Shown here: piece after piece, positions 14,228-55,400 of the stretch
How the letters are laid out: the number at the start of each line of letters is the position of its first letter
Numbering within the stretch: position 1 is the stretch's first letter
Notes under the pieces: generated by a model
What the model was told of the DNA's origin: nothing
Seen by the model: the letters and a program-made list of their open reading frames with translations, nothing else
The model's database searches: none
From: Sergeia podlipaevii
Taxonomy: Eukaryota; Euglenozoa; Kinetoplastea; Trypanosomatida; Trypanosomatidae
Length of the DNA stretch: 59,775 nucleotides
NCBI GenBank assembly: GCA_030849805.1
Contig: JASANZ010002164.1
Span: forward strand, 1 to 59,775
Direction of reading: 5' to 3'
Program-made: the position numbers and the translations under genes

Positions 14228-17200
14228 ATGAAAGCAGCATCGCTCTCGCGTGGTAGCTACAATGAGGAGGAGGTGCCACTGCTTATTCAAGACTTCTCCT
14301 GCTCCAACTGCTTTGAAACTGTGGTGGATGCCATTGAACGGTATCTTCTCGACATTTTTGCTACGGAAGAACTCCTGCAGGACCTTCTGTATCGTGAGCC
14401 ACCAACGCACGTGTACGGCAGCAGCGATGACGTGGTAGTGGCAGCAGCGGTGGGAACAGCAGTGGAAGCGACAGCAGCGCTATCATCTTCCTCATCGTCG
14501 TCACTTTCGACGGCACATTCCCTGCATAGCGAAGGAGGAGATGAAGGAGGAGAGGCACAGCAGCAGGATACAATTACTAGTGGCAGTCCCTCTTCACAGG
14601 GCATGATCCCTTCAATGGTGATGGCGGCGTCAGTAGGGGTCTCAGGTGAGGCACGAGTTTGGGGCCGCAATTTCAAACTGGGCAAGCAGCACAGGCGTGG
14701 TACGGGCGGCAGTGAATCTGCTGGGGACAGCAGCAGCACCATGGTAAACGTTGAAATACATCTTTTTGACTATCATCACCCAATTGCCAAGCAGTTCTAC
14801 CTGCCACTTTTCTTTCTCATTCAAGGTGCCGCCGCCCATCCCACCTATACGGAGAGAGAGGCGAATTACCTCCTGTCCCTTCTCGTTACTGCGGTGGGCA
14901 ACGTGTTTGGTCCTAGCGGCAGACTCGTGCTTGATATCACCTCTGCAGCTTCTCGGCGAGGTCTCTCCTCGGTGGTACCGCTTAGCTCCCCTCTTTTTTA
15001 TGCGCGGGGGTGTGCGCCGTGCTTTGTGCCTCTCGGGGATGCGTTTCAGCAAGTCTTCTCCGGACTTGCACCAACGGCCATTGCTCCACTGGATGGTAAT
15101 GGCGCCTGCACGACCACAAGCGCAGCTGTTGGCCATCACTCTGATAGTGAAGATACAGCGAGCTGGAGCAGTAGCAGCAGCAGGACTAGCGCAGGAGCAG
15201 ACCGTCTGGTGCCATCACAGCAGTCTCAGCCTCCAAGCCGTCTGGCGGTGGCGCTGGGGCAGCCCGTATTTGCGTGCCAGTTTCTGCATCATGTTTTTCC
15301 ACAGGCTCCAGAGGAGTGCCGGTGTGTCAGTGACTACATCGATCTCTTCCAGCTGTATATTGGCCAGCACAGTCGCTTACACAGCGATGATGAGGTGGAT
15401 GGTATGTGCGTGTCGGTCAGTAAAAAATACGAGCTCACCATCCCGTGGCGGTTTCCGTCCACAAACCCAGCCCATTCGGAAGGCCTCACGTGGAGTGCGA
15501 TCCTTGAGCTGGAAAACAGTAATCAGCGCATCCTCTGTGGCCCCTGTACGTACCCGTTTGGGTGCACCTCAGCTCCGCTGCAGAAAATTGAATGCGACGT
15601 GCAGTGGAACCAACTGACTGATTTTGAAGCTCAGGAGAACGCTTCGCGCAGCTACTTGAACCCGCTTGCGGATATCTCAAGTGGTGCGCACAATGGCAGC
15701 GACAAGGCAAATGCAGCAGTGCCAACGGTGACGGAGCGGGTGAGGGCAAAGTCTGCAGTCATTGCTCGCGCGGTCCCGCTTGAAGAGGCCCGAATACGGC
15801 ACATTGTTTGTGATCGTGTCAGCCCGATCGTGGACGTTATATTAAAAAACATCAAGTCGATATTATGCAGCTCTTCGCGTGATATTGCTGACGTGGAACT
15901 TTCAGAAGGGCAGCGGCAGGTTGCCTTCAGCATTGTGGATGCATGTGTGTCTCAAGAGACCCGCGAACGGCACGGCATGCTTCTCAGAAAGATTTCTGCT
16001 TCGCCATGCTCAAAAAATGAAGGGGCTATGCCGATACACTCTCCTGTGTCTCGCTATCTCTTTAATGACGCATTTCGGTCTCAACAGAAGTCGCAGGGTG
16101 TAGCAAACGGCGTCGGGCGGGATGTGCGTTGGGGCTACTTTCCCGGCTCTCTTCCCTCTCGCTTCGCCTACACCATGGCGGACTACATGGTTGCGGACTC
16201 TCACAGCGGTGGTGGTGCGGATGATGGTGGGACGCTGCGACCAGGCACAGTACTCGGGATATGGCGAGCGGCTGTCTCTCATCTCCGCACACGCGTGGAG
16301 CGAGGAGGTGGGAACGACGGCATTGCCTTCGCACTGGCTAGCATCGGGCTTCCGGCCAACAGCGGTGCAAATGTTGATTGTGTGGTCGACGTTGCGCAGC
16401 CTCTTCTTGTGCAAAAAGTACAGTTCCTGGCGTACTGCTTGAGGGAGCTTCTCCGACGCCCAGTATTAGGGGCGACAGCAACATCAGGAGTCGCATCTGA
16501 GCATGCTACGCAAAAGAACGTCCCAACAGATGGGTGGGAAGAGAACGACGATGCAGGAAATGGGGGTAATCTATTAGATGCTCTCGGTGAGCCTTTCTGT
16601 GACGACGACTTTGGCAGTGATGTAGGCAATGGAGGGCAGGTGTGGGGAGAAGCGCGCCTTATTTCCAATCATGAGCCCCTCATGTCGCCTCCAAGCTTCA
16701 CCCCACCGCCGTCTACGACGGATATGTTGCTCGAACGGGCATCAGAGCTGCGGTCGCTTGGTGCTGGTAGCACAGCCCAATTGACGCGGTCATGGCTGCA
16801 GAGCGACACGCTCTACAACGACATGTGTCTATTTCTATACGCCAACCGAGCCCAAGACAGACGGGTCGTACGGTTCCCAGATTTTATTCAGTGGCACAGC
16901 CCGCGGGACTTTGTGCAGCCTCCCCCACATGCCGACCGTGCAGACGACAACGCGTTTCTCTCGGAACGAATGCAAAACCACGAAGATGACTCGGGGAACA
17001 GCGACGACGGTGCAAAGACAGCGCACGTATGGTGGGCACTGTGGGCCCGCGCCACTCCACGGTCCTTGGCGCAAGTCATCAAGGAGTCATTCCGGCCTTA
17101 TGAGCAAGCGGTGCTGACTCTCCGATGGTTAGAGAAGAACGTCACTGCGGAGATGCTGATGATCACCATTGCGGGCGCTACGATTGCCAACGCGGCGCAT

Positions 17201-17791
17201 CGACTTCTATCGCATCCCTTAATAGCTGGAAGTGATGAGGAAGTAGTGCCGGCACTACACACATATGCGCAGTCGGTTATGCACTCTCTCACATGTGACG
17301 TTGAAAGGGCCTCCGCGATCCTCTTGGCGCCGCACCCGTGGGAAGATGCTGGCACACCCTTTATTGATGTAGCGGACGTTGAAACATCTCGCAATCTGTT
17401 TGCCACCGCTGTTCGCAAGCTCGGCGAAGTCGAAACTGCAATCTCTGTTGGACTTGCTGTCCACCACCTGCTTGGGGTATCTCCCTCATCATCGCAGTTG
17501 CTGCCGCAGACAACGCAACCCTTGGCACGAGCACTGAGCTCACCTGCCTTTCGCCAAACAGACCCCACGTGCTTGACGCTCGAACAATCTGTAGCAGATA
17601 TGGCGTCCTGGATGCCAGTGTTTACTACTCGCTTGTCTCCGTTGCACGACCCTGTAGAAACCGTTGTGCGCCTAACCTGTATGGCTGAACGCCCACTTGG
17701 CACAGCGAACTGCTTTCAGCAGCTGGTTGTTCATCACAACAATGGTGGTGTACTCCGCTGTGCATTGGCACTGACGCAGGAAGTTCTATAG
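14228..17791 (+). CDS. RAB3GAP1: Rab3 GTPase-activating protein catalytic subunit
   Basis: 1187 residues, against about 980 in humans. The C-terminal third gives the identity: a segment near residues 865-890 (FLYANRAQD, then QWHSPRDFV) resembles the conserved FVRWYSPRDY stretch of RAB3GAP1. The helical tail that follows (WWALWARATP, then EQAVLTLRWLE) matches the same family. An N-terminal region (NFKLGKQHRR near 150, then FDYHHPIAKQFYLP near 178) resembles the conserved N-terminal part. Low-complexity Ser/Ala/Glu inserts separate these blocks. RAB3GAP1 with RAB3GAP2 acts as GAP for Rab3 and as exchange factor for Rab18 at the ER and in autophagy. The non-catalytic partner is not in this window. 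The call rests on motif recognition. Confidence 0.8.
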   Translation: MKAASLSRGSYNEEEVPLLIQDFSCSNCFETVVDAIERYLLDIFATEELLQDLLYREPPTHVYGSSDDVVVAAAVGTAVEATAALSSSSSSSLSTAHSLHSEGGDEGGEAQQQDTITSGSPSSQGMIPSMVMAASVGVSGEARVWGRNFKLGKQHRRGTGGSESAGDSSSTMVNVEIHLFDYHHPIAKQFYLPLFFLIQGAAAHPTYTEREANYLLSLLVTAVGNVFGPSGRLVLDITSAASRRGLSSVVPLSSPLFYARGCAPCFVPLGDAFQQVFSGLAPTAIAPLDGNGACTTTSAAVGHHSDSEDTASWSSSSSRTSAGADRLVPSQQSQPPSRLAVALGQPVFACQFLHHVFPQAPEECRCVSDYIDLFQLYIGQHSRLHSDDEVDGMCVSVSKKYELTIPWRFPSTNPAHSEGLTWSAILELENSNQRILCGPCTYPFGCTSAPLQKIECDVQWNQLTDFEAQENASRSYLNPLADISSGAHNGSDKANAAVPTVTERVRAKSAVIARAVPLEEARIRHIVCDRVSPIVDVILKNIKSILCSSSRDIADVELSEGQRQVAFSIVDACVSQETRERHGMLLRKISASPCSKNEGAMPIHSPVSRYLFNDAFRSQQKSQGVANGVGRDVRWGYFPGSLPSRFAYTMADYMVADSHSGGGADDGGTLRPGTVLGIWRAAVSHLRTRVERGGGNDGIAFALASIGLPANSGANVDCVVDVAQPLLVQKVQFLAYCLRELLRRPVLGATATSGVASEHATQKNVPTDGWEENDDAGNGGNLLDALGEPFCDDDFGSDVGNGGQVWGEARLISNHEPLMSPPSFTPPPSTTDMLLERASELRSLGAGSTAQLTRSWLQSDTLYNDMCLFLYANRAQDRRVVRFPDFIQWHSPRDFVQPPPHADRADDNAFLSERMQNHEDDSGNSDDGAKTAHVWWALWARATPRSLAQVIKESFRPYEQAVLTLRWLEKNVTAEMLMITIAGATIANAAHRLLSHPLIAGSDEEVVPALHTYAQSVMHSLTCDVERASAILLAPHPWEDAGTPFIDVADVETSRNLFATAVRKLGEVETAISVGLAVHHLLGVSPSSSQLLPQTTQPLARALSSPAFRQTDPTCLTLEQSVADMASWMPVFTTRLSPLHDPVETVVRLTCMAERPLGTANCFQQLVVHHNNGGVLRCALALTQEVL

Positions 17792-18144: not shown

Positions 18145-19464
18145 ATGTCAGTGGTGGCAAGTGACGCTGAACCGCCCACGCTTTCCTTCGTACCCTGTGC
18201 CGAGGACGCTCTGGGCGGTGTCCCCCGCCACTCTTCGAGCATCCAGAGTATTCTTTGCGACGTTGGACGACGCCTTCTGATAGCGCAAGCACGGCTTCAG
18301 CGGCTGGAGGCGACCCCCTCTGTAGAAAGGACAGATGAGGCAAGGAAGGGACTACAGAATGAGGCTCTGTCTTGCCACGAGCTGCTGTGGGGATCCCGCG
18401 AGGCAGTACACGACTCAGGACGACGAGAGTGGCTAGAGACGGCGCTGGTGTTGCTGGAGGTTCAACAGTCCTTAAAGGAGGCGTTCAGGTGGGTGCTGGA
18501 TGGCGAAGGAAAAGGGACACGCGGAGGCAATAGGTGGGTGCTCTGGGAAAACCATCAGCGTCGCATCGACTTTTTGACGTTGCGTACCACAGCCGTAAAA
18601 CCAGAACAGCGTGGCGGCTATATGGTGATGGAGCCCATGACCTATATTGATATAGTGAAGATGGACGGATCAGCTTTTGCGTACCGTGTCCGTCTGTGGC
18701 TGCGCTGCGGAGAACTCACACAGGATTCATTTCCCGATATTGAGCGACACTGTGTAAATCCCCAGATTTGTAGTGGTGAGCCCTGCGCGCTGATAAGGCA
18801 ACTCATCAACTCCACTGTCAGTAGTAGCACACACGATGCCATAGTAGGGGCGCTTCGCTTCCGCATGCTCATGGAGCTCTGTCTTGTTCGACTCGCTGAT
18901 GCACCCCGCTGTCTGTTTATGTGGCGCCTATTCTCTGAATCACTTTCGTACTTGGCTCACTATGCCAGCAAGGGAGACGCTATGAGGACTCCCGGTGTGG
19001 CTGCGCGTGCGGTGATCGGTCACATGCACGCATACATTACTAGCCATCTCATCCCCTATCTTGAGCTGCGAGACAGGCACGTTGAGTCTTTGCGTGGCAC
19101 TATGGCACGCGGTGCGCGAGCGCTCCTTATAAGAGATACAGAGGCGTGGGCCTGCGCTTCATCCTTTGGTGATTCCCCATCATGCGCGATGTACAACGCC
19201 ATGAAGGACATCTGTTGCTACGCAGAAGCCACGGGATCACAGGGAAACTTGCTTCTTCCCTGTGAGGCAGAAGGGAGCGAAGCTGCCCTGGAAGCACCCT
19301 CCAGCAGTTACCACCACGAGACCCTGCGTAATGTGTTGTCATCGTCGTCTGCCCGACGCTCTGGTGTCGAGCACTTCGTCACTCGCTTTTTTCTTCAAGA
19401 CCCAATGCACGCTTTTGAGCGTTCGGGGGTTCAGGCGGCTCGTCCGTGTGAGGACATGAAATAG
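18145..19464 (+). CDS. unrecognised protein, mostly helical
   Basis: 439 residues, not recognised. The sequence looks predominantly alpha-helical and moderately cysteine-rich, without a signal peptide, membrane segment or enzymatic motif that I can identify. The C-terminus (SGVEHFVTRFFLQDPMHAF) looks structured. It is the last gene before the gene-free GC-skew boundary and uses the same codon style as the genes before it. Its coding status is supported by length, strand and the acceptor upstream. Confidence 0.72.
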   Translation: MSVVASDAEPPTLSFVPCAEDALGGVPRHSSSIQSILCDVGRRLLIAQARLQRLEATPSVERTDEARKGLQNEALSCHELLWGSREAVHDSGRREWLETALVLLEVQQSLKEAFRWVLDGEGKGTRGGNRWVLWENHQRRIDFLTLRTTAVKPEQRGGYMVMEPMTYIDIVKMDGSAFAYRVRLWLRCGELTQDSFPDIERHCVNPQICSGEPCALIRQLINSTVSSSTHDAIVGALRFRMLMELCLVRLADAPRCLFMWRLFSESLSYLAHYASKGDAMRTPGVAARAVIGHMHAYITSHLIPYLELRDRHVESLRGTMARGARALLIRDTEAWACASSFGDSPSCAMYNAMKDICCYAEATGSQGNLLLPCEAEGSEAALEAPSSSYHHETLRNVLSSSSARRSGVEHFVTRFFLQDPMHAFERSGVQAARPCEDMK

Positions 19465-19860
19465 GGTGCATACGTTGTAATGCTGCTCTTTTCAGCTGCC
19501 AGCCATTCTTGAACTTTCACACCTAATGCTATGTTTTATTAAATATTGTATACCTGTTTTTTGTGCAGTTATTGAAGAGGCACTTAGAGTACATTTTTTT
19601 TTTGGATTATGGCGTAGACACCCCACACCGTGAAACTGCTCCATACATAAATCATCTCAACACCTCACCTTCACACATTCTCATTCTGCATCATCCAAAA
19701 AGTACACCCACACTACCTTTCTCAGTATAGCAGCACGTGCTCCATCTTACAAAATCAAGTTTCATCACGTATCAGCTCCCGCATCTACAAAAGCCCCTTG
19801 CACTTCCCAATCTCTTTGATCTTCCCACGCAACTATTAGTATACAACATCTCCCGTATTT
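19465..19860 (+). other. CA-rich left flank of the boundary region
   Basis: Gene-free. After about 150 nt of ordinary AT-rich 3' UTR the + strand becomes CA-rich: 19621-19860 contains 85 C and 20 G by my count. The opposite strand is therefore GT-rich here. The skew flips at about 19860. Confidence 0.7.
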
Positions 19861-19878
19861 GGGCTGGGACCTAGGTGG

Positions 19879-20113
19879 GCCGGTGGTCCTGGGCTCTGGG
19901 TCCTGGGTCCTGGGTCCAGGGGTCCTGTGGCTCTGGGTTCTGGGCGGGTGGTCCTGGGTCCTGGGTCCTGCGGTCCTGGGTCCTGCGGTCCTGGGGTCCT
20001 GTGGTTCTGGGTTCTGGGCGGGTGGTCCTGGGTCCTGCGGTCCTGGGTCCTGTGGCTCTGGGTCCTGTGGTCCTGGGTCGGGTGGTCCTGTGGTCCTGTG
20101 GTCCTGTGGTCAT
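19879..20113 (+). repeat. G-rich degenerate tandem repeat (GGTCCTG family)
   Basis: Seven- to eight-base units close to GGTCCTG(T/C/G) are repeated across the region. A higher-order unit beginning GGTCCTGTGG(C/T)TCTGGG starts at 19921, 19995 and 20046; the first two are 74 bp apart. The stretch 19919-20111 has no A at all (193 bases). All three + frames and one reverse frame are free of stops over most of it, which follows from the missing A and the repeat structure and is not evidence of coding. GGG tracts spaced by four bases at 19891-19922 fit the canonical G-quadruplex pattern. Confidence 0.9.
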
Positions 20114-22037
20114 GCGGCGCGTGGTTTTGCGGTTAGGGGGTTGGTTTGGCGGCTTGTGGCGATGGCGCTGGTCGGAAGGTATGTGGATGTGTCGTGGGAA
20201 GTCTGTAAAGGTTATTGGGGGGGGGTGTTTTATTGATATGTAGAGGTTTCCTTTATCTTTGAGATGGGATTCTTTTTGTAAATGGCTTTTGTTCGTTTGG
20301 TGGCGAGTGATGCGGGGGGGGGGGTGCTTGGCGCTTTAGAGGTTGTCATGGTGTGTTTTGTGTGTGTGTGAGTTTGTTTCACCGGTGTTTGTATGGGTAT
20401 GAGTTATGAATGAAGACGAGGAGAGGTGAAGGGGATTTTTCTCCGGGTGGGTGTAGAGTTTGATTTCTTTCGTGCATTGCTTTGGGGTTTCTTAAAGCTG
20501 ATTTTAAGCTTCTTGCTCATACTTTTTGGGTCGGGTTCTGCCTTCTTTGTTTAACAGTTTTGCGAAAATGTTTACAGTATTTTATCCACCCAGTTCTCGC
20601 TTCGATCTTTACAGTTGAATTCTTTATGTGTAGAAGGGGTTGGGTATTTCCTCGGGCTTCGAAAGATCATGTAAAGTGGAACTATATATACTCAAGCAAA
20701 CAGAAAAGTAAAGGATGTACAATAAGATATTTGTACGTTTTGGGGGCGTGGGATTCGCCCTTTCATGCTAGGTGCTTTGATGACTTAGATGTTTACACCG
20801 AACGTGTCTCTTTTTCTTCTTCGCTCTTTACTTATTCTATTACATTGTTTGTGTTTTGCTGGCTGTTGGTGTCTTGGTTGTGAATAGTTATATACACTCG
20901 TGTGGTTGATGGGGATTTGGCGATATCTTTGCACAAAGGGGCGATGTGATGTGTGATGAATAGGTAAGCGTATAATTGTTAAAGGCATTTTACGATAGTT
21001 TGCACTGGTGGGAGCCACCTATTTAGAGTTGGGTATATTATTTTGTGTTTTGTTTGTTCAAGATGAGGAAATATATATATATATGTATATACAGTTTGCA
21101 TTGTTGTGATGTGAGATGCATTTTGGAAGGTCACTTTGATTGTTTTGTTTGCAATGATGTATTATTTGATTATGAAGTTTTTATATTATCTTGAATAATT
21201 GGTCAATTCGCTCACTTTTTCTTTTGTACATACTTTTTTTTCTTTTTGTAGCTGATAGGTGTTTTTTTTTTCTTGTCATTGCTGAGAATTCTTTTCTCTG
21301 ATTCAAGTATGCAATGTACTTCTCTATTTTTAACTTAAGCAAGCATTAGTAAATCACTTTATCTTTGATATTTTTTATATCAACAAATATAAAAATAATA
21401 ATTGTTGTAATCAGTTGTTTCTCATTAGCATGAGCAGAGGTTCTCCAAGCTGTTTTGCGTGCTGCATGAGGCATTCTGTACCTTTTTTTTTTGATTCCAT
21501 TAAATTTTCAATGTTTCTTCTTTATTAAGTGGGGTTGTTACAATGCTTGCTGCTGTGCTCGTAGTGAGCAGGAGAGAAAAAATGATTGGTTACACGTATG
21601 TTTTCGTTTACAAGAGAAAGCACAAATTTTAAGAAAAATTTGCGTTTTGTTTTGTTTGGCGCTGTTTCTGCCTTTTATTCAATATTTTTATGAAATTTGT
21701 TATTAAAGTTTTGGCTTGTGTGGCGTTAGACTGTTTGCTTAAAAGAGGGAAAAGCGATTGGAGTTGTATTTGTGCTGACTTAAGCGTTTTCGTGTTTTTA
21801 AGCGGACGCTAACACAATTGTGTTCGGACAATAACTTCAGTATTTACTTTTGTGTCTTCGCAGGAATTTTTTTGTCCTTAAAAATTTTTACTTTTGACAT
21901 ATTGAAACTTAAATGCATTTAGCTGAGGGCGATTGCTTGTGTATTATTTTTCATGTTTTTGTTTTGCCTGCTTTCGTCAAAATTTTCGCTTTATTTTATT
22001 CCTTTTTGGATTTTCTTTTTTAATCAATAGAGAAAGG
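20114..22037 (+). promoter_or_regulatory. GT-rich region, candidate RNA polymerase II start region
   Basis: Gene-free. The + strand is GT-rich: 20161-20400 contains 94 G and 20 C by my count. It carries runs of nine G (20217-20225) and eleven G (20314-20324). GT-rich DNA and G-runs are associated with RNA polymerase II start regions in Trypanosoma brucei. After about 21050 the region becomes AT-rich. The last 50 nt hold the splice signal of the EFHC1 gene (tract 21983-22021, AG 22029-22030). A frame at 20626-20883 starts with ATG but has no recognisable features and is not called. The promoter role is inference. Confidence 0.45.
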
Positions 22038-24383
22038 ATGAAGAACAGTGTTGTTCGTACTCAACCCGGAAAGGCGTATGCTCATTTGCCAAAAGATGAG
22101 AATCGCCCCTTAGCCATTGGCGCCAATTTTCATGACGACCCTCTTAGTAGGAATACGCAGCGCAAGAGCCACAACCTTCTGTTAGATTCAAAGGTGAACC
22201 ATGCACCACATACAGAGTACATCTACAATGGTGGCACTCGTTCGCATCAAAATGCTGCGTCTGTTGGGCGGTATTCCGCAACACAAAGTGGTGCAGATGA
22301 TTCAGACGATGCTGACGTGTGGGATGGCTGGTTCTCTGAAGAACTTTCTGAAGAAGATAAGAAGGAGTTTGTCGTGCGAATGTTGGGATATTTCCGCGAA
22401 AAAGTTCCAGAGAGCCCCTTGGAGGAGGAGCGAGTAAGAAAGGTGTGCATAAAGTATTTTGTCAAGGATGATAGCATTGCCATTGTTGAGCCAAAGGTTG
22501 AGAACAGCGGCATCGAGCAGACTGGAATTCTTTCGCGTCGTCGTGTTCCGAAAGATGGTGGAGACGCCAGCGACCTGGTACTTCTGAGTGATTTTGAAAT
22601 TGGTAATTCCATTTCCATTTTTTGTCAGACATATCATATTTTGGATATGGATGCGCGCAGTCGGCGTTATTTTTATGAGGTACTGGGCCAAGAAGTTCCG
22701 ACTGGGATTCTCCTTCCGCAAGATGCCTTTAGCACGCGAAGGATGCAGAAGGGCCTGCCTAACACACGGATGATGACAGCAGATGACATGGATGCAAAGC
22801 GAGTGGCAGAACAACAACTGACTGGCATTTACACGAAGCACTCGAATGAAGATATTGCTATTGCACAACAGTTTCTCAAGAATAAGATCAACGAGCATCT
22901 CGCTTTCCTTGCTTTATGGGATGACCGTGGAAGCATTAGCGGTGATGCCCATCTTTGTGTTATCCGTTTATTTCTTGAGAATTTTTCGATTGAAATTGCG
23001 GAAAAGCAAGCAGAGAACTCTGGCCGCATGACTGGGCCAATTCTTTTGAGCCGCCAGCGTGTTCTCAGGCCAGGTACTGTGCTGGAAAAGAGCAGATACC
23101 AGCAGCACACTTATGGGAAGTTGATGAAGACGGATTATCTATGCCCTGAAGATTTTCAAATTGGCGAAACGTACAATATTTTTGGGAAGCCGTTTTTTAT
23201 TTACGATGCAGACCAACATACGCGTGAGTACATGAAGGCTAATTGCAACATTGAGCTTAAGCCAGCAGTGGATACTTCTCCTTTTCTGCATAGCGACTCG
23301 AAGACCGTTATGTTTCACGTTCCACCACCGAACGGATTTGGAAGTGAAAAGGAACGTCGCGACAATTGGCTGGCGTTGGTGGGCAAGACTGCCAGACTGG
23401 ATCAAGATAAAATTCGGAAGGAAACGGGACGTATCATGAACTTTTCTGCGCGACTTGCGAAGCCACTGGTAAAGGGTGATGAGGAGCGCGAATTTATTAT
23501 TACGTTTTACCGTGAAACAGACGAACTTGAAATAAATGAGAAGCCTCGCCGCAACTCTGGGTTTTTGGGCGGTCGTTTTCTGCTCAAAGGAAAGCACCGC
23601 AAGCAACTGCCTAACGGAACAACGGTGCTTTTTCAGCCTAGTGACTTTGTTGTTGGTCAGGAGGTTGTTATTTTTGAACGTCCATTTATTCTATTGGATA
23701 TGGATCTGGGAACGAAGCGAATTTTGGAGGGAAGTGATAATCCTACAACTGATGACAAGATCAAATATCTGGTGGTCTTGCTCAAGCAACAAATCAACCT
23801 TCGTTTTACACGAGCCAATGAGGCGTACCTGGCACTTGCTCCAAATGGCACTCTCGGATTTAAGCAAGTAAAGGAGTTTCTACGTTCTTCCAGCTGTGAT
23901 ATTTCTGACGAGGAAGCACTGCTGATTGTGCAGAACATTTCCCCCGGAACCAACGGCGTTATTTCTTTTGATGATTTTCTTGTTATTCTCAATGCGTCCG
24001 CAGAAAGCATGGATGAGGCTTCCATGTCTGCACGCTCCGTGAAAAACGTGAATATGGCGGTAGATCAAGCGATGAAGACCAATGCAGATAGCTCTGAGGA
24101 TAGGCAGAGACGCCGTGAGCTGCAATTGCTTTTGCAGCACAAGCTCATTCAGCGCAAGGGCACGACGAACGAGCAGTTTCGGTTGCTTGGCGGACACAGT
24201 GCCAACGCACGCATGCATCGTGATGCATTTCGCCGCTCACTTGACGAGCTTTTGCACATCAACATGGGCAAGAAGGACGAGGATATGATGGTATCAATGC
24301 TTTTTGATGGAAAAGAGGACGAAAACGGAGAGATCGCGTTTAAGCAGTTCCAAGAATTTGTTGATTCAACGGTTCCTGTATAG
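22038..24383 (+). CDS. EFHC1: EFHC1/Rib72-like DM10 and EF-hand flagellar protein
   Basis: 781 residues. Three DM10 domains lie at about 120-212, 285-402 and 465-563. Each carries an acidic strand followed by the 'ENSG' or 'RNSG' and 'DFxxG' elements (for example PKVENSG, then LSDFEIGNSISIF). EF-hand-like segments follow near 598-652 and 750-775. Three DM10 domains plus C-terminal EF-hand is the layout of EFHC1 and Chlamydomonas Rib72, inner-junction and microtubule-lumen proteins of the axoneme. The frame is open upstream to a TTG, but that part encodes only the T-rich splice tract; the acceptor AG at 22029-22030 gives a 7-nt 5' UTR. The gene appears more AT-rich than its neighbours. Confidence 0.9.
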   Translation: MKNSVVRTQPGKAYAHLPKDENRPLAIGANFHDDPLSRNTQRKSHNLLLDSKVNHAPHTEYIYNGGTRSHQNAASVGRYSATQSGADDSDDADVWDGWFSEELSEEDKKEFVVRMLGYFREKVPESPLEEERVRKVCIKYFVKDDSIAIVEPKVENSGIEQTGILSRRRVPKDGGDASDLVLLSDFEIGNSISIFCQTYHILDMDARSRRYFYEVLGQEVPTGILLPQDAFSTRRMQKGLPNTRMMTADDMDAKRVAEQQLTGIYTKHSNEDIAIAQQFLKNKINEHLAFLALWDDRGSISGDAHLCVIRLFLENFSIEIAEKQAENSGRMTGPILLSRQRVLRPGTVLEKSRYQQHTYGKLMKTDYLCPEDFQIGETYNIFGKPFFIYDADQHTREYMKANCNIELKPAVDTSPFLHSDSKTVMFHVPPPNGFGSEKERRDNWLALVGKTARLDQDKIRKETGRIMNFSARLAKPLVKGDEEREFIITFYRETDELEINEKPRRNSGFLGGRFLLKGKHRKQLPNGTTVLFQPSDFVVGQEVVIFERPFILLDMDLGTKRILEGSDNPTTDDKIKYLVVLLKQQINLRFTRANEAYLALAPNGTLGFKQVKEFLRSSSCDISDEEALLIVQNISPGTNGVISFDDFLVILNASAESMDEASMSARSVKNVNMAVDQAMKTNADSSEDRQRRRELQLLLQHKLIQRKGTTNEQFRLLGGHSANARMHRDAFRRSLDELLHINMGKKDEDMMVSMLFDGKEDENGEIAFKQFQEFVDSTVPV

Positions 24384-24829: not shown

Positions 24830-26194
24830 ATGCGGCCATTGTTTTGGAATACGTCGCGGTTGCTTTTTGGCACAGGCAGCACTCAAGGAGGTGTAAAGAA
24901 GGTAGTTGTCGCAAAGATCGATTATGACCGGTGGGCAGTCAAAGAAGGCACACGTGCGCTTCTTGCCTCTGCTCACCATCCTCTGGTACTAGAGTATTTT
25001 GTACGTCTCAATGACAAACGTGTTGCATTGGAGAAATGGATGGAAAGCAGCACCAACAGCAGCAGTGTAACGGCTCTCACAAACAAAATAGACAGTAGCC
25101 CATTCAATCATGTGCAATGGAATGTTATATATAGAGATGAACTGGACGTAGCTGAAAAGATGAGTGGCTTGCTGCGACAACTGGATGAAAATGTGACGCT
25201 GCGGGATCAGCTAGCGGCCAAACAGGACGCAACCACAAACGACAAGGAGCTGCTAGAAATTGTGAAGGAGGAAATAGCGGATCTGGTGTCGCAGGTTACG
25301 TCTCTCAATGACGAGGTGGATCCTGTCATGGAGAAGCGTCTAAACTCAGAGGATATTGTTGGATCTTCGAGTAATACGTGGACCATCACTGTTTCTGGAA
25401 AAGCTGGAGGTGAGGAGGCGAGCTTGTTTGCTGCTGAGTTAGCTGAGATGTTTAGGGTGTACGCGACAGAGTTTCGGGATCTAAAAGTTCAAATCATCCC
25501 GAGTGGAGGGTCTTCCGCTAGTGGCGACGCCGCCGACGAGTCCATAGCAGCAGGTACTATCGGGGAAAACAAATTTCGGGTCATTGGTGTGAATGTCTAC
25601 AGATTTTTTCATCATGAAATTGGCGTACACAAAGTGCAACGCGTGCCAGTGGCGGATTCCGCAGGAAAAATGCAAACTTCTACCGCTGTATTTACCATGA
25701 TGCCCGAGCTGAACCCCGTTTCTGTTGATGTGCACGAGAGCGACTGCAAAATTGACTTTGTGCGTGGCTCAGGGCCTGGCGGCCAAGGTATGCAGAGTAG
25801 TTCGAACTGTGTGGTGCTGACTCACAAGCCGTCTGGCATCTCTGTCAAGTGCCATCAATCGCGGTCAGCTCTTGGGAATAAGGAGCTAGCGCTGCAGATG
25901 GTGGCACAACAAATTCTTTCTGAGCGCGTGAAGGATCAAAAATCGTCGCTTTATGAGGCGTGGAAAAATCAATGGAGCAGCGGCGAGCGATCTGATAAGA
26001 TGAGAACGTACAACTATCCACAAAACCGGGTGACCGACCATCGCATTGGAAAAGATTTCCCACTACAGGCGTTTATGGAACGCGGCTTTGGGCTGAAGCA
26101 GCTCCACGATGAACTTAACAGCATCAATGACCAACAACAGTTGAGTATTGTGCTTCTGAAGCACATTGATGGGGACTTTGGAAGCACAGTATAA
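24830..26194 (+). CDS. mtRF1: mitochondrial class I release factor, RF1 type
   Basis: 454 residues. A short basic and aromatic N-terminus (MRPLFWNTSRLLFG) suits mitochondrial import. The family landmarks are present: HKVQRVP near 267-273 and the catalytic GGQ at 317-319 in GSGPGGQ, followed by the C-terminal helices. Release factors recognise stop codons and use the GGQ glutamine to hydrolyse peptidyl-tRNA. In trypanosomatid mitochondria UGA encodes Trp, so a factor for UAA and UAG is expected, which fits RF1. Two oddities: the tripeptide at 273-275 is PVA where bacterial RF1 has PxT, and the residues after GGQ (GMQSSSN) differ from the common HVNTTDS. An insertion near residues 62-80 is Ser/Thr/Asn-rich. 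Confidence 0.92.
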   Translation: MRPLFWNTSRLLFGTGSTQGGVKKVVVAKIDYDRWAVKEGTRALLASAHHPLVLEYFVRLNDKRVALEKWMESSTNSSSVTALTNKIDSSPFNHVQWNVIYRDELDVAEKMSGLLRQLDENVTLRDQLAAKQDATTNDKELLEIVKEEIADLVSQVTSLNDEVDPVMEKRLNSEDIVGSSSNTWTITVSGKAGGEEASLFAAELAEMFRVYATEFRDLKVQIIPSGGSSASGDAADESIAAGTIGENKFRVIGVNVYRFFHHEIGVHKVQRVPVADSAGKMQTSTAVFTMMPELNPVSVDVHESDCKIDFVRGSGPGGQGMQSSSNCVVLTHKPSGISVKCHQSRSALGNKELALQMVAQQILSERVKDQKSSLYEAWKNQWSSGERSDKMRTYNYPQNRVTDHRIGKDFPLQAFMERGFGLKQLHDELNSINDQQQLSIVLLKHIDGDFGSTV

Positions 26195-49426: not shown

Positions 49427-52400
49427 ATGGAGGCAGCGGATAAACCACTGCTGCAGTCATGGGGCTCCCGTGCGCTACAGCTTTTTAGTGATGAAGTGAA
49501 CGAACTGACTGAGCTCTCTTACCTGGACCAACAGCAGCGGGAGGCTGAACTTGTTGGCATACGCGCCAAGGCGACCGCAGAGGCAGAGGTGGCACTTCGT
49601 CCGTCCTCAGGCGCTAACGCGACGTCATCAAGCCCGCAGAGTACGCGCAAGGCAGTTAGGCTGAAGGGTGCTGGCAACAATGACGCCTCGGCGACTGCAC
49701 TGGCTTTCAAGAAGGCCAAGTACATTGACGAGCGCGTGAAGGAGATCGTTCAGGCGCGCGATCATCAGCAAGGATGGCGCGTGCTAGGAGCTAAGATGGA
49801 GGAGGAGCTGCACAAAGTAAAGGCCACTGTGGACCCAGTACGCGCGCGGGAGCACAAGGAGTTTGAATTCTTTCTTTCTCACAACTACGACTTTTTTACG
49901 ATGGACGAAATTCTTTCTACCGATCGCAACATGCCACCTACTGGCAAGCAGCAGCAATCACAACACTCAGAGGCTTCACCGGCATCCGCCGCGGATGCTG
50001 CCGGAGAGGAGGCTGCAGCAGCTTACTCAGCACCGAGTTCGACAGCGGCCACAAAGGCGTTGAAAAATGCCCTCGTGCGGCCTCCGTTTATTATTGACGC
50101 TGTTGGATTTGCCGAGGACTACAACGCCACTCTGCAAGCTGAGTACAGTTATAGGCCCGCTATGGGAGCCAACCACCCAGGCCCATCTATGTCTCATTCT
50201 CCTGCCGCCACTGACAATGCAGCGCTGAAGCGATTGCTAGACACTCACGGACCTGGGTTGGCCACCACGCCTCCTCAGTTTTGCTCCAAGGTGTGGAACG
50301 CAGCAACAGTAACAACAGCCGGAGCAGCAGTAACAGCTGGTGGGCAGCAGCAGCAGCAGCAGGCAGACACGGTACTAGCGTCTCTCAATTTACCACCAAT
50401 AGCGCGGACAGCTACGGCTTCATTGGATGAAGAGCAGCAGCAGCAGCGCTACTGTCCACCTGACAAGCCCAATCGACTGACTTCTTCCCTGGAACTCCCT
50501 CCCATCGAAGAGGGAGGAGGGACCCACGCACAAACGGCACCGGGGAAGCGGAGCCTTGGTAAGAAACGAGGCAAGAAGGATTTAGCAGCGACTGCGGCGG
50601 CGATGGCTGGAGACGACTCTAGCGCTGACGCTCTGCGGGCAGACATGATGGCACAGGATAGGTACCTTTCTAACGTTGATTGCTCAATCCGCGACCGTAA
50701 CCTGCGTCTCACGAGTACAGCAGGACAGGAGATAAAGACCATAGTGCGCTTTACCAATCGCAATGCCCACCGCATGCGTCTGCGCGTGGTCGCGGCTGCC
50801 CATCCGTGGCTGAGCTTTAACTGCAAGGCCGTGGCTGCAGTCGCCGGCGGAGTCATCCGTAGTGGGCCTTCTGCGGAAGCAGAGGCGGCGCTGTTGAGCT
50901 GTGGTGGGTACATGGAGGTGGAGGTGACCTTCGAGCCGCAGGACACAACGGAGCCGCTTATCGAAGAAGTATTGCACATCGGTGTGACCAGGGAGGTCAA
51001 CGCGCGTTCCTTGGAAGGGTCACAGTGGGCATTTCTCGATGTGCACGTGCGTTGCGAGACGGCGCTTCCAGGCTTTTGTTTGTACCAGAGCAGTGTGTGC
51101 CTCGCTGACCAAGGCTTAGAGCGCTTGACGCCTTGTCCGACCACTGTGGATGACATAGGGGATGGATTAATGATTTTGGGAGAGGCGGGAGAGGAAGGCA
51201 GGGAAAGGGGTGGCGATAGGACGGTTGTAAAGAAATCCAAAGCGCAGTCAAAGACGAAGAAGGACGCCAGTGAGAGATTGACACAGAAGAGGCAGCATCA
51301 GCAGCAAGTCACAGAGTGCTGCTTCCCTCCAACGCTTGTGTTGGCCAAGTCGGAGATGCGCTTTCACCTCGAGAACGTTGGCTCCAATGCTGTTGTGAAT
51401 ATCTTGAGCGACTCTCCTGCCTTTGTCATTCAACCGTCTTCGGAAACGGCTACGCTGCTCCCACAGGGTGATGCCATGGACCTTGTTGTGCTCTTCTCGC
51501 CACCTTGTGCAGACAGCGAGGACGAGGCCGAGTATGGTAACAGCGCTGCTGACAAGGGCGAGAACAGTGGCACTGGAATGTGCCGCGGAGTCATGACCAT
51601 CGTGGTGCGCGACAGCGAGGAAGGCCCAGTCCTGTCAGAGCACTTCTTCTGCATGTCCGGCCTTGCCGTAGTGCCTCACGTGACGGTTAAGCAGCTCAAC
51701 GATGTTGTGATAGCGGACAGTGGGAAGCCGCAGTGGAGCCTCGACGATCCTAGCAAGCCAACAGCCGGCGAAGGGGCTCCAAGGTACCTCGCCGAGGACA
51801 CCACACCCGGCGTCACCACTCAGGTGCAGGTGGTGGTGAGCAATGACAGCCCAATATCTCTTCCATTTTATTGGAGCTGCGAGGACGGCACTGGACTAGC
51901 ATCAATTGGTGAGTGCACCGCCGAGCTGAACTCTGCTGTTGGAACTATGAATATTGCTCCCGCCTCGGGCATGCTGCCCGCAGAAGCGGATATGCACTTT
52001 ACTATCTCCATTACGCCTTGCACCGCACAGCCGCTCATCACGTCATGGGCGTTGTTTCTTGAGGGCATGCCGGACCCTATTATGAGTGAGTACTTGGTGT
52101 TTCAGCAGCAGCATAGCGGGCTGCCCCCATGTAACGCGAATGCCGTCGGCCTTTACACTCGCGCCAAGTTTATTCCATCAGCAGACACCATGACCGCGAT
52201 GACACATGCTAAGAAGGAAGCTTCCGGTAGTCTTGATAGCATAGCAAGCGCTGCAGGTGGTGGCACTCCCAATGTGTACCGCGATCCTTTTGGCGCGTTC
52301 ATTCATAGCAATCGCCTGCAGGATCCTCTGCAGATACCTCACGCCTTCGCTACTGGATTCTTTGTCTATGCCCAACCTCGCACTCCCAGCGCGGTGCTTG

Positions 52401-55400
52401 TGCCGCAGCGTCTAGAGGAGGCTGTGGACTGCCTCATTCACTATGACAATGTACGCCGCGTCGCGTTGCAGAACCACTCACCACGTCCACTCACCTTTAT
52501 CTTTGATCCTACAGAGGCGGAGCTCAACCAAGATGGCAATCAGTACACACGTGTGGCGAGTGATGCGCGAGATGTGGTGTCGCTCAAGTTTGTGCCTCGC
52601 AAGGGAGTTGTACCAGCGTTTGGCAGCATAGATATCACTGTCCGTTTTACCGTCAACACTCCTGGCTGCCACTGTGTCGCAGCCGACTGCTTCATTGCGG
52701 AAATCATGGCGCTTACTGGGCCTGGCGCACCGTGCTCACACCAGCTTCGGCTCGACGTCACCGGTGTAGGTGCCTGCTTGCACACCAGCACAGACCTTCT
52801 CGACTTTGGCCTGATGGAAGCCGGCGGCGAGGCAGCGGCCTCGTTTACCGTCACCAACGACAACCCCATTCCGGCTGTATTTGATCTACAGGATCCGCTG
52901 TTCCGAGAGCCTGCTCGCTTTGTCTTTCTGCCACCATCCTTTAGACTTCGGCCAGGGGACTCGGTGGAAGTCACCGTGTACCGTCGCGGCATCCCAGGCG
53001 ACGATGCGCAGACGTTCTTTGAGCTTGTCGTGCGCGAAGGTGGATCGACGCTGGCGATAGAGACCCGTGCGACCATTCAGGTCCCAACGCTGGTGCTCGA
53101 TAGCGCGGTCGTCAACTTTGGCGAGGTCCCTGAGGGTGTGTGGCAAGACGGTCATATTTACCTCTCCAACGCATCTGGCCTGGATATTGCGTTTTCGCTG
53201 GAGGCGGTGACGCCACCGGACCCACACGTGCAGCTCAAGTTCGCGACGGATCATGTGATACGTGCCGGGCAGAGTCACGTGGGGATTCCAATTCGAGGAA
53301 AGTTTCTCTTTCGAGGCGGCAGCAGCGATAGCAAAGACAGTGGCAAGCGGCTCAAGGGTAGTGCCGACCAGCCGGCAGATGGCATGGAGGCTGCACCGCT
53401 GCCAGCACAGCAGCCAACACCTACGTTGCTGCGCATACGGTCCAAACGTGGACCTCAGACTCTCCTTTTGGAAGTGCGCTGCGGTCACGTGTCGCGTCTC
53501 AGTGTTTCGCTGGATGTTGTTCCTGCCAACGGTGCACGCAGTGTTTCACTAGTTGCCGCTGCGGGTCCCAATAGCACCAACAGCAGCAGGCCTTCACTCA
53601 TTCCAGGGAACTGTGGCGATGCTGAAGAGCGGGCTACCACCGCGTACATTCAAGCGCTGTTGTACAACTCCCTTAATGCCGCATTAGACGCCTGCGCTGC
53701 CGAGAGCATATCAGGCCACAGTGGCGTGTTGGTTCCACTGAGACCATACTGCCCGCCTGTTGGCCTCACAGTAGAGATGGCAGATGACTCGCCTGTGTGC
53801 AGCGAGGAGCTGGACCTACACATTTGCAACTACACGGGCTGCGATAGCCACTACAGCGTGCGTCTGCTGAACTACAGCCCTCTCTTTGTTACCCCTGCAG
53901 ATGTGGCGGCTGCTGTGCTGGCTGTTGGGTCCTTCAGCCTTGAGGAGTCGGAGCGTCAGAGCAAACAGCAGCAGCAGCGGCGGCGCGGCACACAGCGCAG
54001 TGTATCAAGCAAGCAGGGCCACAGTATTCCCTCCGTCACGGAGCTCACACGCGGGTCTCGCAGTGCTACAGAAGGCACTCACCACATCGCCACCTCAGCG
54101 ATCGAACACTTCGAAGGCGACCGCCCAGTGTTCTGGGCCACTAGCATAAACGGCGAGGAGCAGCGGGAGCGGCAGCGACGTGCTGCTCTGGCAGAGGCCC
54201 AGCGACTACTCCTTGACGGCCGTGGGTGCGCTTCACAGCTGACCACCTTTGCCTCGAACAGCAACAGCAACAGTGGTGGCATCGGCAGCGGTGACCTCGG
54301 CCCTCACGCCTTGTTGCAGCTTCCCATTTCCTTCACCACCAACCTACCTGGTTGCTACACGGAGCAGGTGCGTGTGCAGTGCGGCCACTTGCCCCCGGTG
54401 GATATCCCTATTACATATGAAGTCTTTGGCAAACCGCTGCTGCTTGACCCGACCACCTCCGGTCTTACCACTGTGGGTTCTCACCGCGTTCTCATTATGC
54501 CGCCGGTGATTGCATCAGTAGGCTCATCGCGGCGCAACCTGCGCGTCATGAACCGAGCCCCACGCGACATTAATGTCTTCGTGGTCATTTATCTCTGCGC
54601 AGCTTCTTTCAAGGTTGTCGCGGTGGAAGAGGACGCGGACGCAAGCCAGGTGGTGCTGAAGCTAGGCCCACTTCTTGATTCCGACCGCAGGCGCGAGGCG
54701 GTCGGCAAGGGATCCGCCTACGTGCAGCCCGAAAGCTTCTTTATGGCGGCAATGTCCTCCAAGGAGGTGTTGATCGAGTACACACCCGCGGCGGAAATGG
54801 TGGCTGGTGTGCTTGCCCGCATGGGTGCTGCGGCTGCTGAGGTCGGCGGAGACGGTAACGACGGGGCTCCAGTCTCTTCTGCCATGCAAGAGGTCGACTG
54901 GCGGGGAAGTCTTGTGATTCACGCTGAGGTGACTTCAAGCACTTTCAACGACGCATTCTTGATGGATGAGTTTTACACGATTCACGCCGATCGCTTCCCG
55001 AGTACACGCATTCTGAGACAGCCAGCGGCTGGCGACAACAGCGACGCGGGTAGTGGGAAGACCGCTACCACATCTAGCATGCCATGGCTGAACAGTGTCA
55101 CACAGAGCATTCCGCTTTTGCAAGTGATGCGTCCCCTTCGCACGCGGCCTGGGCGTGTGCTACGCAATAATAAAATGCTGCGGCCTACTCCAGCTGAGCG
55201 GGTGATCCTTGAGAGGGAACAGTCGCGGCGCTCTGGTGGGACAGGATCTTCTTTGCGACGTAGTCGGGTGATATCACGGAACGAATTGACCAGCAGCAGC
55301 AGGCCGTTGCAGCAGCAGCGAGGCAAGTCAGAGGAACGCGGTAGCGACGGCGGCCACGATGGGGATGGAGAACGTACGACGCCGACGCCGTATTTGAGGG

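What the first reader, a model, noticed from the sequence alone, without database searches (positions are those of the whole stretch)
19621..20480. Mirror-image GC skew inside a one-directional gene array: candidate internal transcription start region
By direct count, 19621-19860 has 85 C and 20 G, and 20161-20400 has 94 G and 20 C; the flip is sharp, at about 19860. Each arm is thus GT-rich when read outward. GT-rich DNA is reported to promote RNA polymerase II initiation and H2A.Z deposition in Trypanosoma brucei. The outward symmetry suggests a bidirectional start site, yet genes on both sides lie on the + strand, so a leftward transcript would be antisense. It could separate two head-to-tail units or mark an old rearrangement.
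Basis: partly seen in the sequence, partly recalled or inferred. Interest (0 to 1): 0.75.

Follow-up and report, generated by a model that had tools for sequence, protein, structure and literature searches.

The report
Likely internal gene-array start boundary
In the genome of a trypanosomatid related to Strigomonas, a gap between two genes that point the same way carries an unusually sharp switch in strand composition and a small G-rich repeat, which most likely marks where one long multi-gene transcript ends and the next begins, a kind of site already known in related parasites.

Summary
In detail: 85 C/20 G in 19621-19860, 94 G/20 C in 20161-20400. The flip at 19855 is the strongest in 222,775 sampled bases of this genome (0.92; next 0.65), in the longest (2573 b) and most GT-rich of 44 sampled same-strand intergenics. 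The flanking genes Rab3GAP and CARP4 are close neighbours in three other trypanosomatids, so a rearrangement is unlikely. Two divergent strand-switch regions of the same genome show this polarity only weakly, so skew this strong is not the ordinary start-site signature here. In Leishmania major, sharp G-skew flips with forward-strand G4s, also between head-to-tail units, mark the single origin/kinetochore locus per chromosome (PMC7511235). Best reading: a head-to-tail transcription-unit boundary with a rightward start region, possibly also an origin/centromere; reverse-strand G4s and a clearly negative left T skew, expected for that subclass, are absent. No chromatin or RNA data were available.

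The parts
14228..17791 (+). Rab3GAP catalytic-subunit-like gene (1187 aa), second gene upstream; synteny anchor
   Evidence: Pfam PF13890 E 5.6e-33; homologues with locus tags
18145..19464 (+). last gene upstream: 439-aa ORF, no Pfam match, no homologue found
19465..19620 (+). 3' flank of the upstream gene, T-rich, with a T-tract near its end; no GC skew (30 G, 26 C)
19621..19860 (.). left arm: C-rich, G-poor (85 C, 20 G); no second copy found in the genome
19885..20111 (+). GGTCCTG minisatellite (7-b unit, about 30 copies), nearly free of A on +; canonical G4 motifs at 19891-19922, 19935-19965, 20009-20032 on + only; no second copy found in the genome
20112..20500 (+). right arm, core: G/T-rich, C-poor, G-tracts of 9 (20217) and 11 (20314)
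20501..22037 (+). right arm, tail: T-rich with G over C, fading to background towards the next gene
22038..24383 (+). first gene downstream: CARP4/Rib72/EFHC1-like (781 aa), three DM10 stretches and an EF-hand match below its cut-off
   Evidence: Pfam PF06565 E 1.3e-67; 62% identical to the Leishmania martiniquensis and Novymonas proteins
24830..26194 (+). second gene downstream: peptide chain release factor-like
   Evidence: Pfam PF00472 and PF03462

Best explanation
A head-to-tail boundary between two polycistronic transcription units. Shown: a 2.6-kb same-strand gap with a sharp C-rich to G/T-rich switch, a G4-motif minisatellite at the switch, G-tracts on the sense strand just downstream, and about 1.9 kb of GT-rich sense strand up to the CARP4 gene. 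Inferred: the upstream unit ends around 19.5-19.9 kb, and Pol II starts again over a broad GT-rich stretch from about 20.1 kb, running rightward into CARP4; the GT bias on the non-template strand favours H2A.Z/acetylated nucleosomes and sets direction, as reported for GT-rich DNA in T. brucei. The short C-rich arm would be the upstream edge, carrying at most weak leftward (antisense) initiation.
For: Strongest skew flip in 222,775 sampled bases and highest G+T in 300-, 500-, 1000- and 1500-b windows of them. Longest and most GT-rich (0.635; next 0.629) of 44 sampled same-strand intergenics; best two-part skew split of the 30 of these with 500 b or more: 0.70, next 0.41. Outward G-tracts also occur in both divergent strand-switch regions read from the same genome (G9 in C571; C18 and C12, i.e. 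G-tracts of the minus strand, in C563), where the polarity is the same but weaker. Literature, passages only: GT-rich elements drive directional transcription and H2A.Z deposition (PMC5579346); 54 internal acetyl-H3 peaks in L. major, 38 without other features, with G-tracts the only motif at presumed start sites of protein-coding units (PMC2679053); internal starts in T. brucei (PMC2936537); head-tail regions in L. major (PMC11708010).
Against: No RNA or chromatin data. The two divergent regions, which should be starts, lack strong skew (best flips 0.56 and 0.48; two-part split of the C571 region only 0.13), so the signature is not calibrated as a start mark here. G-tracts of 9 or more are common (9 in 163,000 sampled bases), and L. 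major has them throughout its genome too (PMC2679053). In T. brucei, GC skew around start codons was inversely, not positively, related to R-loop signal (PMC6294496). Of the 48 baseline stretches besides the window, 40 are 2.5 kb and two 1.5 kb long, so long intergenics are under-counted; L027 in C530 has 3.1 kb without a called gene in a minus array.
Confidence: 0.55

Rival explanations
1. It is the origin/centromere subclass of such boundaries: the one early-S replication origin and kinetochore (KKT1) site of its chromosome, with the skew flip imprinted by leading strands leaving the site and G4s on the leading strand.
For: L. major: a highly localised negative-to-positive G and T skew flip with G4s downstream on the forward strand marks the early-S AcH3/base J/KKT1 sites, also between head-to-tail units (chr 31), while other internal AcH3 sites flip in T skew only (PMC7511235, section 8 read whole). 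Here G skew flips strongly and forward-strand G4s sit at the flip; a G4 with 4-b spacers and 7-b period occurs in only 3 places of 23.4 Mb (5 matches; the pattern read backwards has 3). Origin-bearing boundaries are longer in Leishmania (PMC4612428, passages); this one is 2573 b against 1894 and 2136 b for the two divergent regions. On a CARP4 tree the organism groups with Strigomonas culicis, nearer to Leishmania than to Trypanosoma.
Against: No canonical G4 on the reverse strand anywhere in the window; T skew is -0.04 in the left arm and +0.09 over the whole left part, not clearly negative; the left arm is only 240 b, while the paper used 1-kb windows and plots of 10 kb to each side. Position of the chromosome's origin in relatives could not be checked (one search found no paper).
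Confidence: 0.25
2. No start site: a long 3' flank of the 439-aa gene in which a G-rich minisatellite and GT-rich simple sequence have grown by slippage, next to a C-rich stretch by chance.
For: The repeat, two G-tracts and a GT run at 20349-20379 carry much of the right arm's peak skew; simple sequence makes a 0.87 flip in another one-directional array (L027); GT-rich long flanks exist elsewhere, e.g. L039 at 0.66 per kb; of 12 other places with paired G-tracts, five lie between called genes of one strand.
Against: The C-rich left arm is not a tandem repeat, and the GT bias goes on for more than 1 kb past the repeat; both arms are at the extreme of the sample at the same place.
Confidence: 0.3
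3. Scar of an old inversion or join of two units.
For: Compositional mirror symmetry only.
Against: Rab3GAP and CARP4 are 3, 5 and 7 locus tags apart, on contigs of identical length, in Leishmania sp. Namibia, Porcisia hertigi and Leptomonas pyrrhocoris (in L. seymouri they lie on two short contigs, which tells nothing). 18 short inverted pairs but no long one (longest 25 b at 72%). 6-mers shared between one arm and the reverse complement of the other: 64 against 51 +/- 10 for shuffles.
Confidence: 0.04
4. An unannotated RNA gene or cluster (tRNA, snRNA, snoRNA).
For: 16 of the internal acetyl-H3 peaks in L. major follow tRNA or snRNA genes (PMC2679053).
Against: No tRNA, no Rfam match at gathering score, and in the gap only six matches at E 0.85 to 3.8, all below their gathering scores.
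Confidence: 0.05

Closest known systems
[quoted passage not shown] major, base J followed by acetyl-H3 inside a unit (PMC11708010, PMC2679053, PMC4612428; passages)
   Same: Boundary-like gap inside a one-directional array, G/T-rich sense strand, G-tracts
   Different: Chromatin and polymerase were mapped there; here only sequence. The G-skew flip here is stronger than in the two divergent regions of its own genome
AcH3/base J/KKT1 early-origin (centromere) loci of L. major (PMC7511235)
   Same: Sharp local negative-to-positive G skew and forward-strand G4s at and after the flip, also between head-to-tail units
   Different: No reverse-strand G4s on the left, left T skew near zero rather than negative, left arm very short, origin and kinetochore untested
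GT-rich promoters / non-divergent transcription start regions of T. brucei (PMC5579346; passages)
   Same: GT-rich sense strand in a one-directional array, direction set by strand
   Different: Different genus; the T. brucei elements were tested in reporters; the G4 minisatellite has no counterpart in the passages read

Membership tests
Head-to-tail transcription start region | lies between genes on the same strand, at a long intergenic | tested here: met
   all genes called in the window on +; longest of 44 sampled same-strand intergenics
Head-to-tail transcription start region | GT-rich sense strand with G-tracts | tested here: met
   G+T 0.77 in 500 b from 19994, highest sampled; G9 and G11; but G-tracts are common
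Head-to-tail transcription start region | same composition as presumed starts of the same genome | tested here: inconclusive
   two divergent regions show the same polarity, much weaker
Head-to-tail transcription start region | acetyl-H3/H2A.Z peak preceded by base J; primary transcripts | not testable with these tools
   needs ChIP-seq and 5'-triphosphate RNA-seq
AcH3/base J/KKT1 origin-centromere locus | local negative-to-positive G-skew flip | tested here: met
   -0.38 to +0.31 over the whole intergenic; in 1-kb windows -0.13 to +0.35
AcH3/base J/KKT1 origin-centromere locus | local negative-to-positive T-skew flip | tested here: not met
   rises but is not clearly negative on the left: left arm -0.04, whole left part +0.09, right +0.35; 1-kb windows +0.12 to +0.45
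AcH3/base J/KKT1 origin-centromere locus | G4s on forward strand downstream of the midpoint | tested here: met
   three canonical motif stretches at 19891-20032 on +
AcH3/base J/KKT1 origin-centromere locus | G4s on reverse strand upstream of the midpoint | tested here: not met
   no canonical motif on the - strand in the window; the paper used experimentally mapped G4s, not motifs
AcH3/base J/KKT1 origin-centromere locus | longer than other boundaries | tested here: inconclusive
   2573 b against 1894 and 2136 b, n = 2
AcH3/base J/KKT1 origin-centromere locus | early-S replication peak and KKT1 binding, one per chromosome | not testable with these tools
   needs MFA-seq, ChIP-seq and a chromosome-level assembly
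T. brucei GT-rich promoter | strand-biased 10-mers enriched at start regions and reporter activity | not tested

The most novel reading that the evidence does not exclude
The G4 minisatellite with its two opposite-skew arms is the combined transcription-restart and early-origin/kinetochore site of its chromosome, readable from sequence alone in a species with no map of either that I could find; the repeat itself would be a recently expanded element that stops the incoming polymerase and opens the DNA for both machineries.
Probability: 0.17. Interest if true: 0.65.

Novelty: new member of a known kind. Interest (0 to 1): 0.4.

Why it matters
If a sharp G-skew flip with one-sided G4s predicts head-to-tail boundaries, or their origin/centromere subclass, it gives a cheap, testable predictor for species without chromatin maps, and the locus gives a concrete place to ask whether GT bias causes initiation or only records it.

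Tried and rejected
Paired G-tracts as a genome-wide start mark: 13 distinct places have two G9 runs 70-100 b apart. Of the 12 besides this window, one (C563) proved to lie in a divergent region; C530 lies in a minus array (minus at four of four sampled points, one of them weak); five (L008, L013, L015, L021, L025) lie between called genes of one strand; the other five were not settled. Best flips among these places besides the window: 0.87 (L027) and 0.70 (L030), the rest 0.64 or less. So paired G-tracts are not a start mark here.

Long G/T-only runs as a search pattern: none of 30 b without mismatch in the window. Inverted duplication or second copies of the arms: none found (the search tool skips simple repeats). 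RNA gene: none. Homologues of the 439-aa gene: none among 7993 scored candidates, so the immediate left neighbour could not be placed in relatives. A strict pyrimidine-tract/AG search found no splice acceptor in the gap, which says little. Position of the L. major chromosome 25 origin near CARP4: no paper found and the centromere paper is not held; that CARP4 lies on chromosome 25 is my inference from contig lengths and recall, and that T. brucei Rab3GAP lies on chromosome 3 rests on contig length and recall.

The sample is small: 17 large contigs probed at a few points; two were minus then plus, hence two divergent regions. The left edge of the C563 region rests on a weak 135-aa ORF. The 11 paired-G-tract loci and L096 were not random and were kept out of the 222,775-base baseline; L085 (inside L086) and the short probes L087-L100 were left out too. 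In checking, I found that one search had counted 31 intergenics including the C571 divergent one; one search recounts 30 of one strand, with the same ranking.

Full report
WHAT WAS CHECKED. The window is a whole contig (C465, 59,775 b) of an unnamed 23.39-Mb, 576-contig genome. Its proteins are trypanosomatid: the CARP4-like protein is 60-62% identical to Leishmania and 62% to Novymonas proteins and 54-58% to Trypanosoma, and on a FastTree of 41 sequences it groups with Strigomonas culicis (support 0.78), on the Leishmania side rather than with Trypanosoma, although some deeper nodes are weak.

THE OBSERVATION. The base counts are exact. The 240-b skew reaches its window minimum (-0.62) at 19615 and its maximum (+0.69) at 20194, and the steepest flip of the window is at 19855 (0.92; next 0.59). 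To get a baseline I read 163,000 b from elsewhere in the genome (48 stretches, L038-L084 and L086); with the window this makes 222,775 b. The best flip of any other stretch is 0.65. If the weaker of two arms up to 400 b apart is scored, the window has 0.62 and no other baseline stretch more than 0.36. Among 30 sampled same-strand intergenics of 500 b or more, the best two-part split is 0.70 here and 0.41 next. So this is far more than ordinary variation.

ANATOMY. After the 439-aa ORF (18145-19464) come about 155 b of T-rich flank without GC skew, then the C-rich left arm (19621-19860), then a GGTCCTG minisatellite (19885-20111) that is almost free of A and holds the only canonical G4 motifs of the window, all on + (19891-19922, 19935-19965, 20009-20032). 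Then comes the G/T-rich core with G-tracts of 9 and 11, then a T-rich tail with G over C that fades towards the CARP4 gene at 22038. Two units of the repeat occur as an exact match only here, a DNA search found no second copy of the repeat or of either arm (the tool skips simple repeats), there is no long inverted repeat, and no RNA gene was found. A four-part G4 with 4-b spacers and 7-b period occurs in only three places of the genome. The intergenic is 2573 b, the longest of 44 sampled same-strand ones, with the highest G+T (0.635; next 0.629; pooled others 0.55). Of the 48 other stretches, 42 were 2.5 kb or shorter, so long intergenics are under-counted; L027 on contig C530 has 3.1 kb without a called gene in a minus array.

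NEIGHBOURHOOD. Upstream: Rab3GAP-like (PF13890) and the orphan 439-aa ORF. Downstream: a protein with three DM10 stretches (PF06565) and a weak EF-hand match (PF13499, under its cut-off), then a release-factor-like protein. The DM10 protein corresponds to CARP4 of T. [quoted passage not shown] CARP4 and Rab3GAP carry locus tags 3, 5 and 7 apart, on contigs of identical length, in Leishmania sp. Namibia, Porcisia hertigi and Leptomonas pyrrhocoris; in L. seymouri they are on two short contigs, which tells nothing. The linkage is old, so a recent join or inversion at this point is unlikely. The tags also suggest 2, 4 and 6 genes in between there against one here; what they are was not seen.

CONTROL AT PRESUMED START REGIONS. 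By sampling gene strands along large contigs I found two divergent strand-switch regions: C571:51429-53322 (1894 b) and C563:73684-75819 (2136 b; its left edge rests on a weak 135-aa ORF). In both, the strongest negative-to-positive flip of the stretch read lies inside the region and next to an outward G-tract, but it is modest (0.56 and 0.48). Whole-arm G skew goes from -0.15 to -0.02 and from -0.27 to +0.05, T skew from -0.29 to +0.04 and from -0.21 to +0.09; in the window it is -0.38 to +0.31 for G and +0.09 to +0.35 for T. So polarity agrees, but the strong G-skew flip is not what these divergent starts look like. This counts against reading the skew simply as 'bidirectional start site'. 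n is only two.

LITERATURE. GT-rich DNA can drive directional Pol II transcription and H2A.Z deposition in T. brucei, with about 4:1 sense to antisense primary transcripts (PMC5579346, passages); internal starts and antisense reads are reported in PMC2936537 (passages). In L. major 54 of 184 acetyl-H3 peaks are internal, 38 without other features, and a G-tract was the only motif at presumed start sites of protein-coding units, though common elsewhere (PMC2679053, passages). Head-tail regions with base J then acetyl-H3 exist inside L. major units, and polymerase falls to zero inside a unit only where a centromere lies (PMC11708010, passages). The closest match to the finding is in PMC7511235 (section 8 read whole; other passages): a highly localised negative-to-positive change of G and T skew, with G4s on the reverse strand upstream and on the forward strand downstream, at the AcH3/base J/KKT1 early-S sites, visible also between units transcribed in the same direction; other internal AcH3 sites change in T skew only. 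A later paper says that these single sites per chromosome appear to be the centromeres and overlap localised skew changes (PMC12890776, passages). Against a simple R-loop account, skew around start codons in T. brucei was inversely related to R-loop signal (PMC6294496, passages).

INTERPRETATION. I favour a head-to-tail transcription-unit boundary with a rightward start region (0.55). Within that, the strong G-skew flip and forward-strand G4s fit the origin/centromere subclass, but two of its features were tested and not met (reverse-strand G4s upstream, clearly negative left T skew), so I do not file it as a member (0.25, as a rival that overlaps with the best reading). Expansion of simple sequence in a long 3' flank without a start function remains a serious rival (0.3), supported by the L027 control, where a purine run alone gives a flip of 0.87. 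The confidences overlap and do not add to one.

NOVELTY. The kind of site is known from L. major. What may be new is a one-locus G4 minisatellite at such a flip in a lineage related to Strigomonas; one search for papers with at least four of six terms (Angomonas deanei, Strigomonas culicis, strand switch, centromere, replication origin, transcription start) found 16, of which 15 were listed, and no listed title is about mapping these features in Angomonas or Strigomonas. This is a search of open papers only, and the species itself is not identified.

Noticed in passing
window 18145-19464: 439-aa ORF with coding-like composition but no Pfam match and no homologue among 7993 scored candidates; perhaps a fast-evolving or lineage-specific gene just upstream of the boundary.
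   Followed up: partly
window 49427-57025: 2532-aa ORF with CFAP65/HYDIN-type Ig-like domains (PF24507, PF22544), a probable axonemal protein in the same array as the CARP4/Rib72-like gene.
   Followed up: no
L027 (C530:23956-27045): 3.1 kb without a called gene inside a minus-strand array, with G-tracts of 11 and 10 on + and a purine run that makes a 0.87 GC-skew flip; a candidate second boundary or just simple sequence.
   Followed up: partly
C563:73996-74107 (L031): C-tracts of 18 and 12 b, 100 b apart start to start, inside a divergent strand-switch region, i.e. G-tracts pointing into the minus unit.
   Followed up: partly
C388:11400-11423 and C492:53352-53382: The only other places of the genome with the same 4-b-spacer, 7-b-period G4 pattern; context unread.
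   Followed up: no
L051 (C573:3001-5500) and L053 (C572:3001-5500): No coding ORF called in these stretches near contig ends; perhaps repeats or subtelomere.
   Followed up: no
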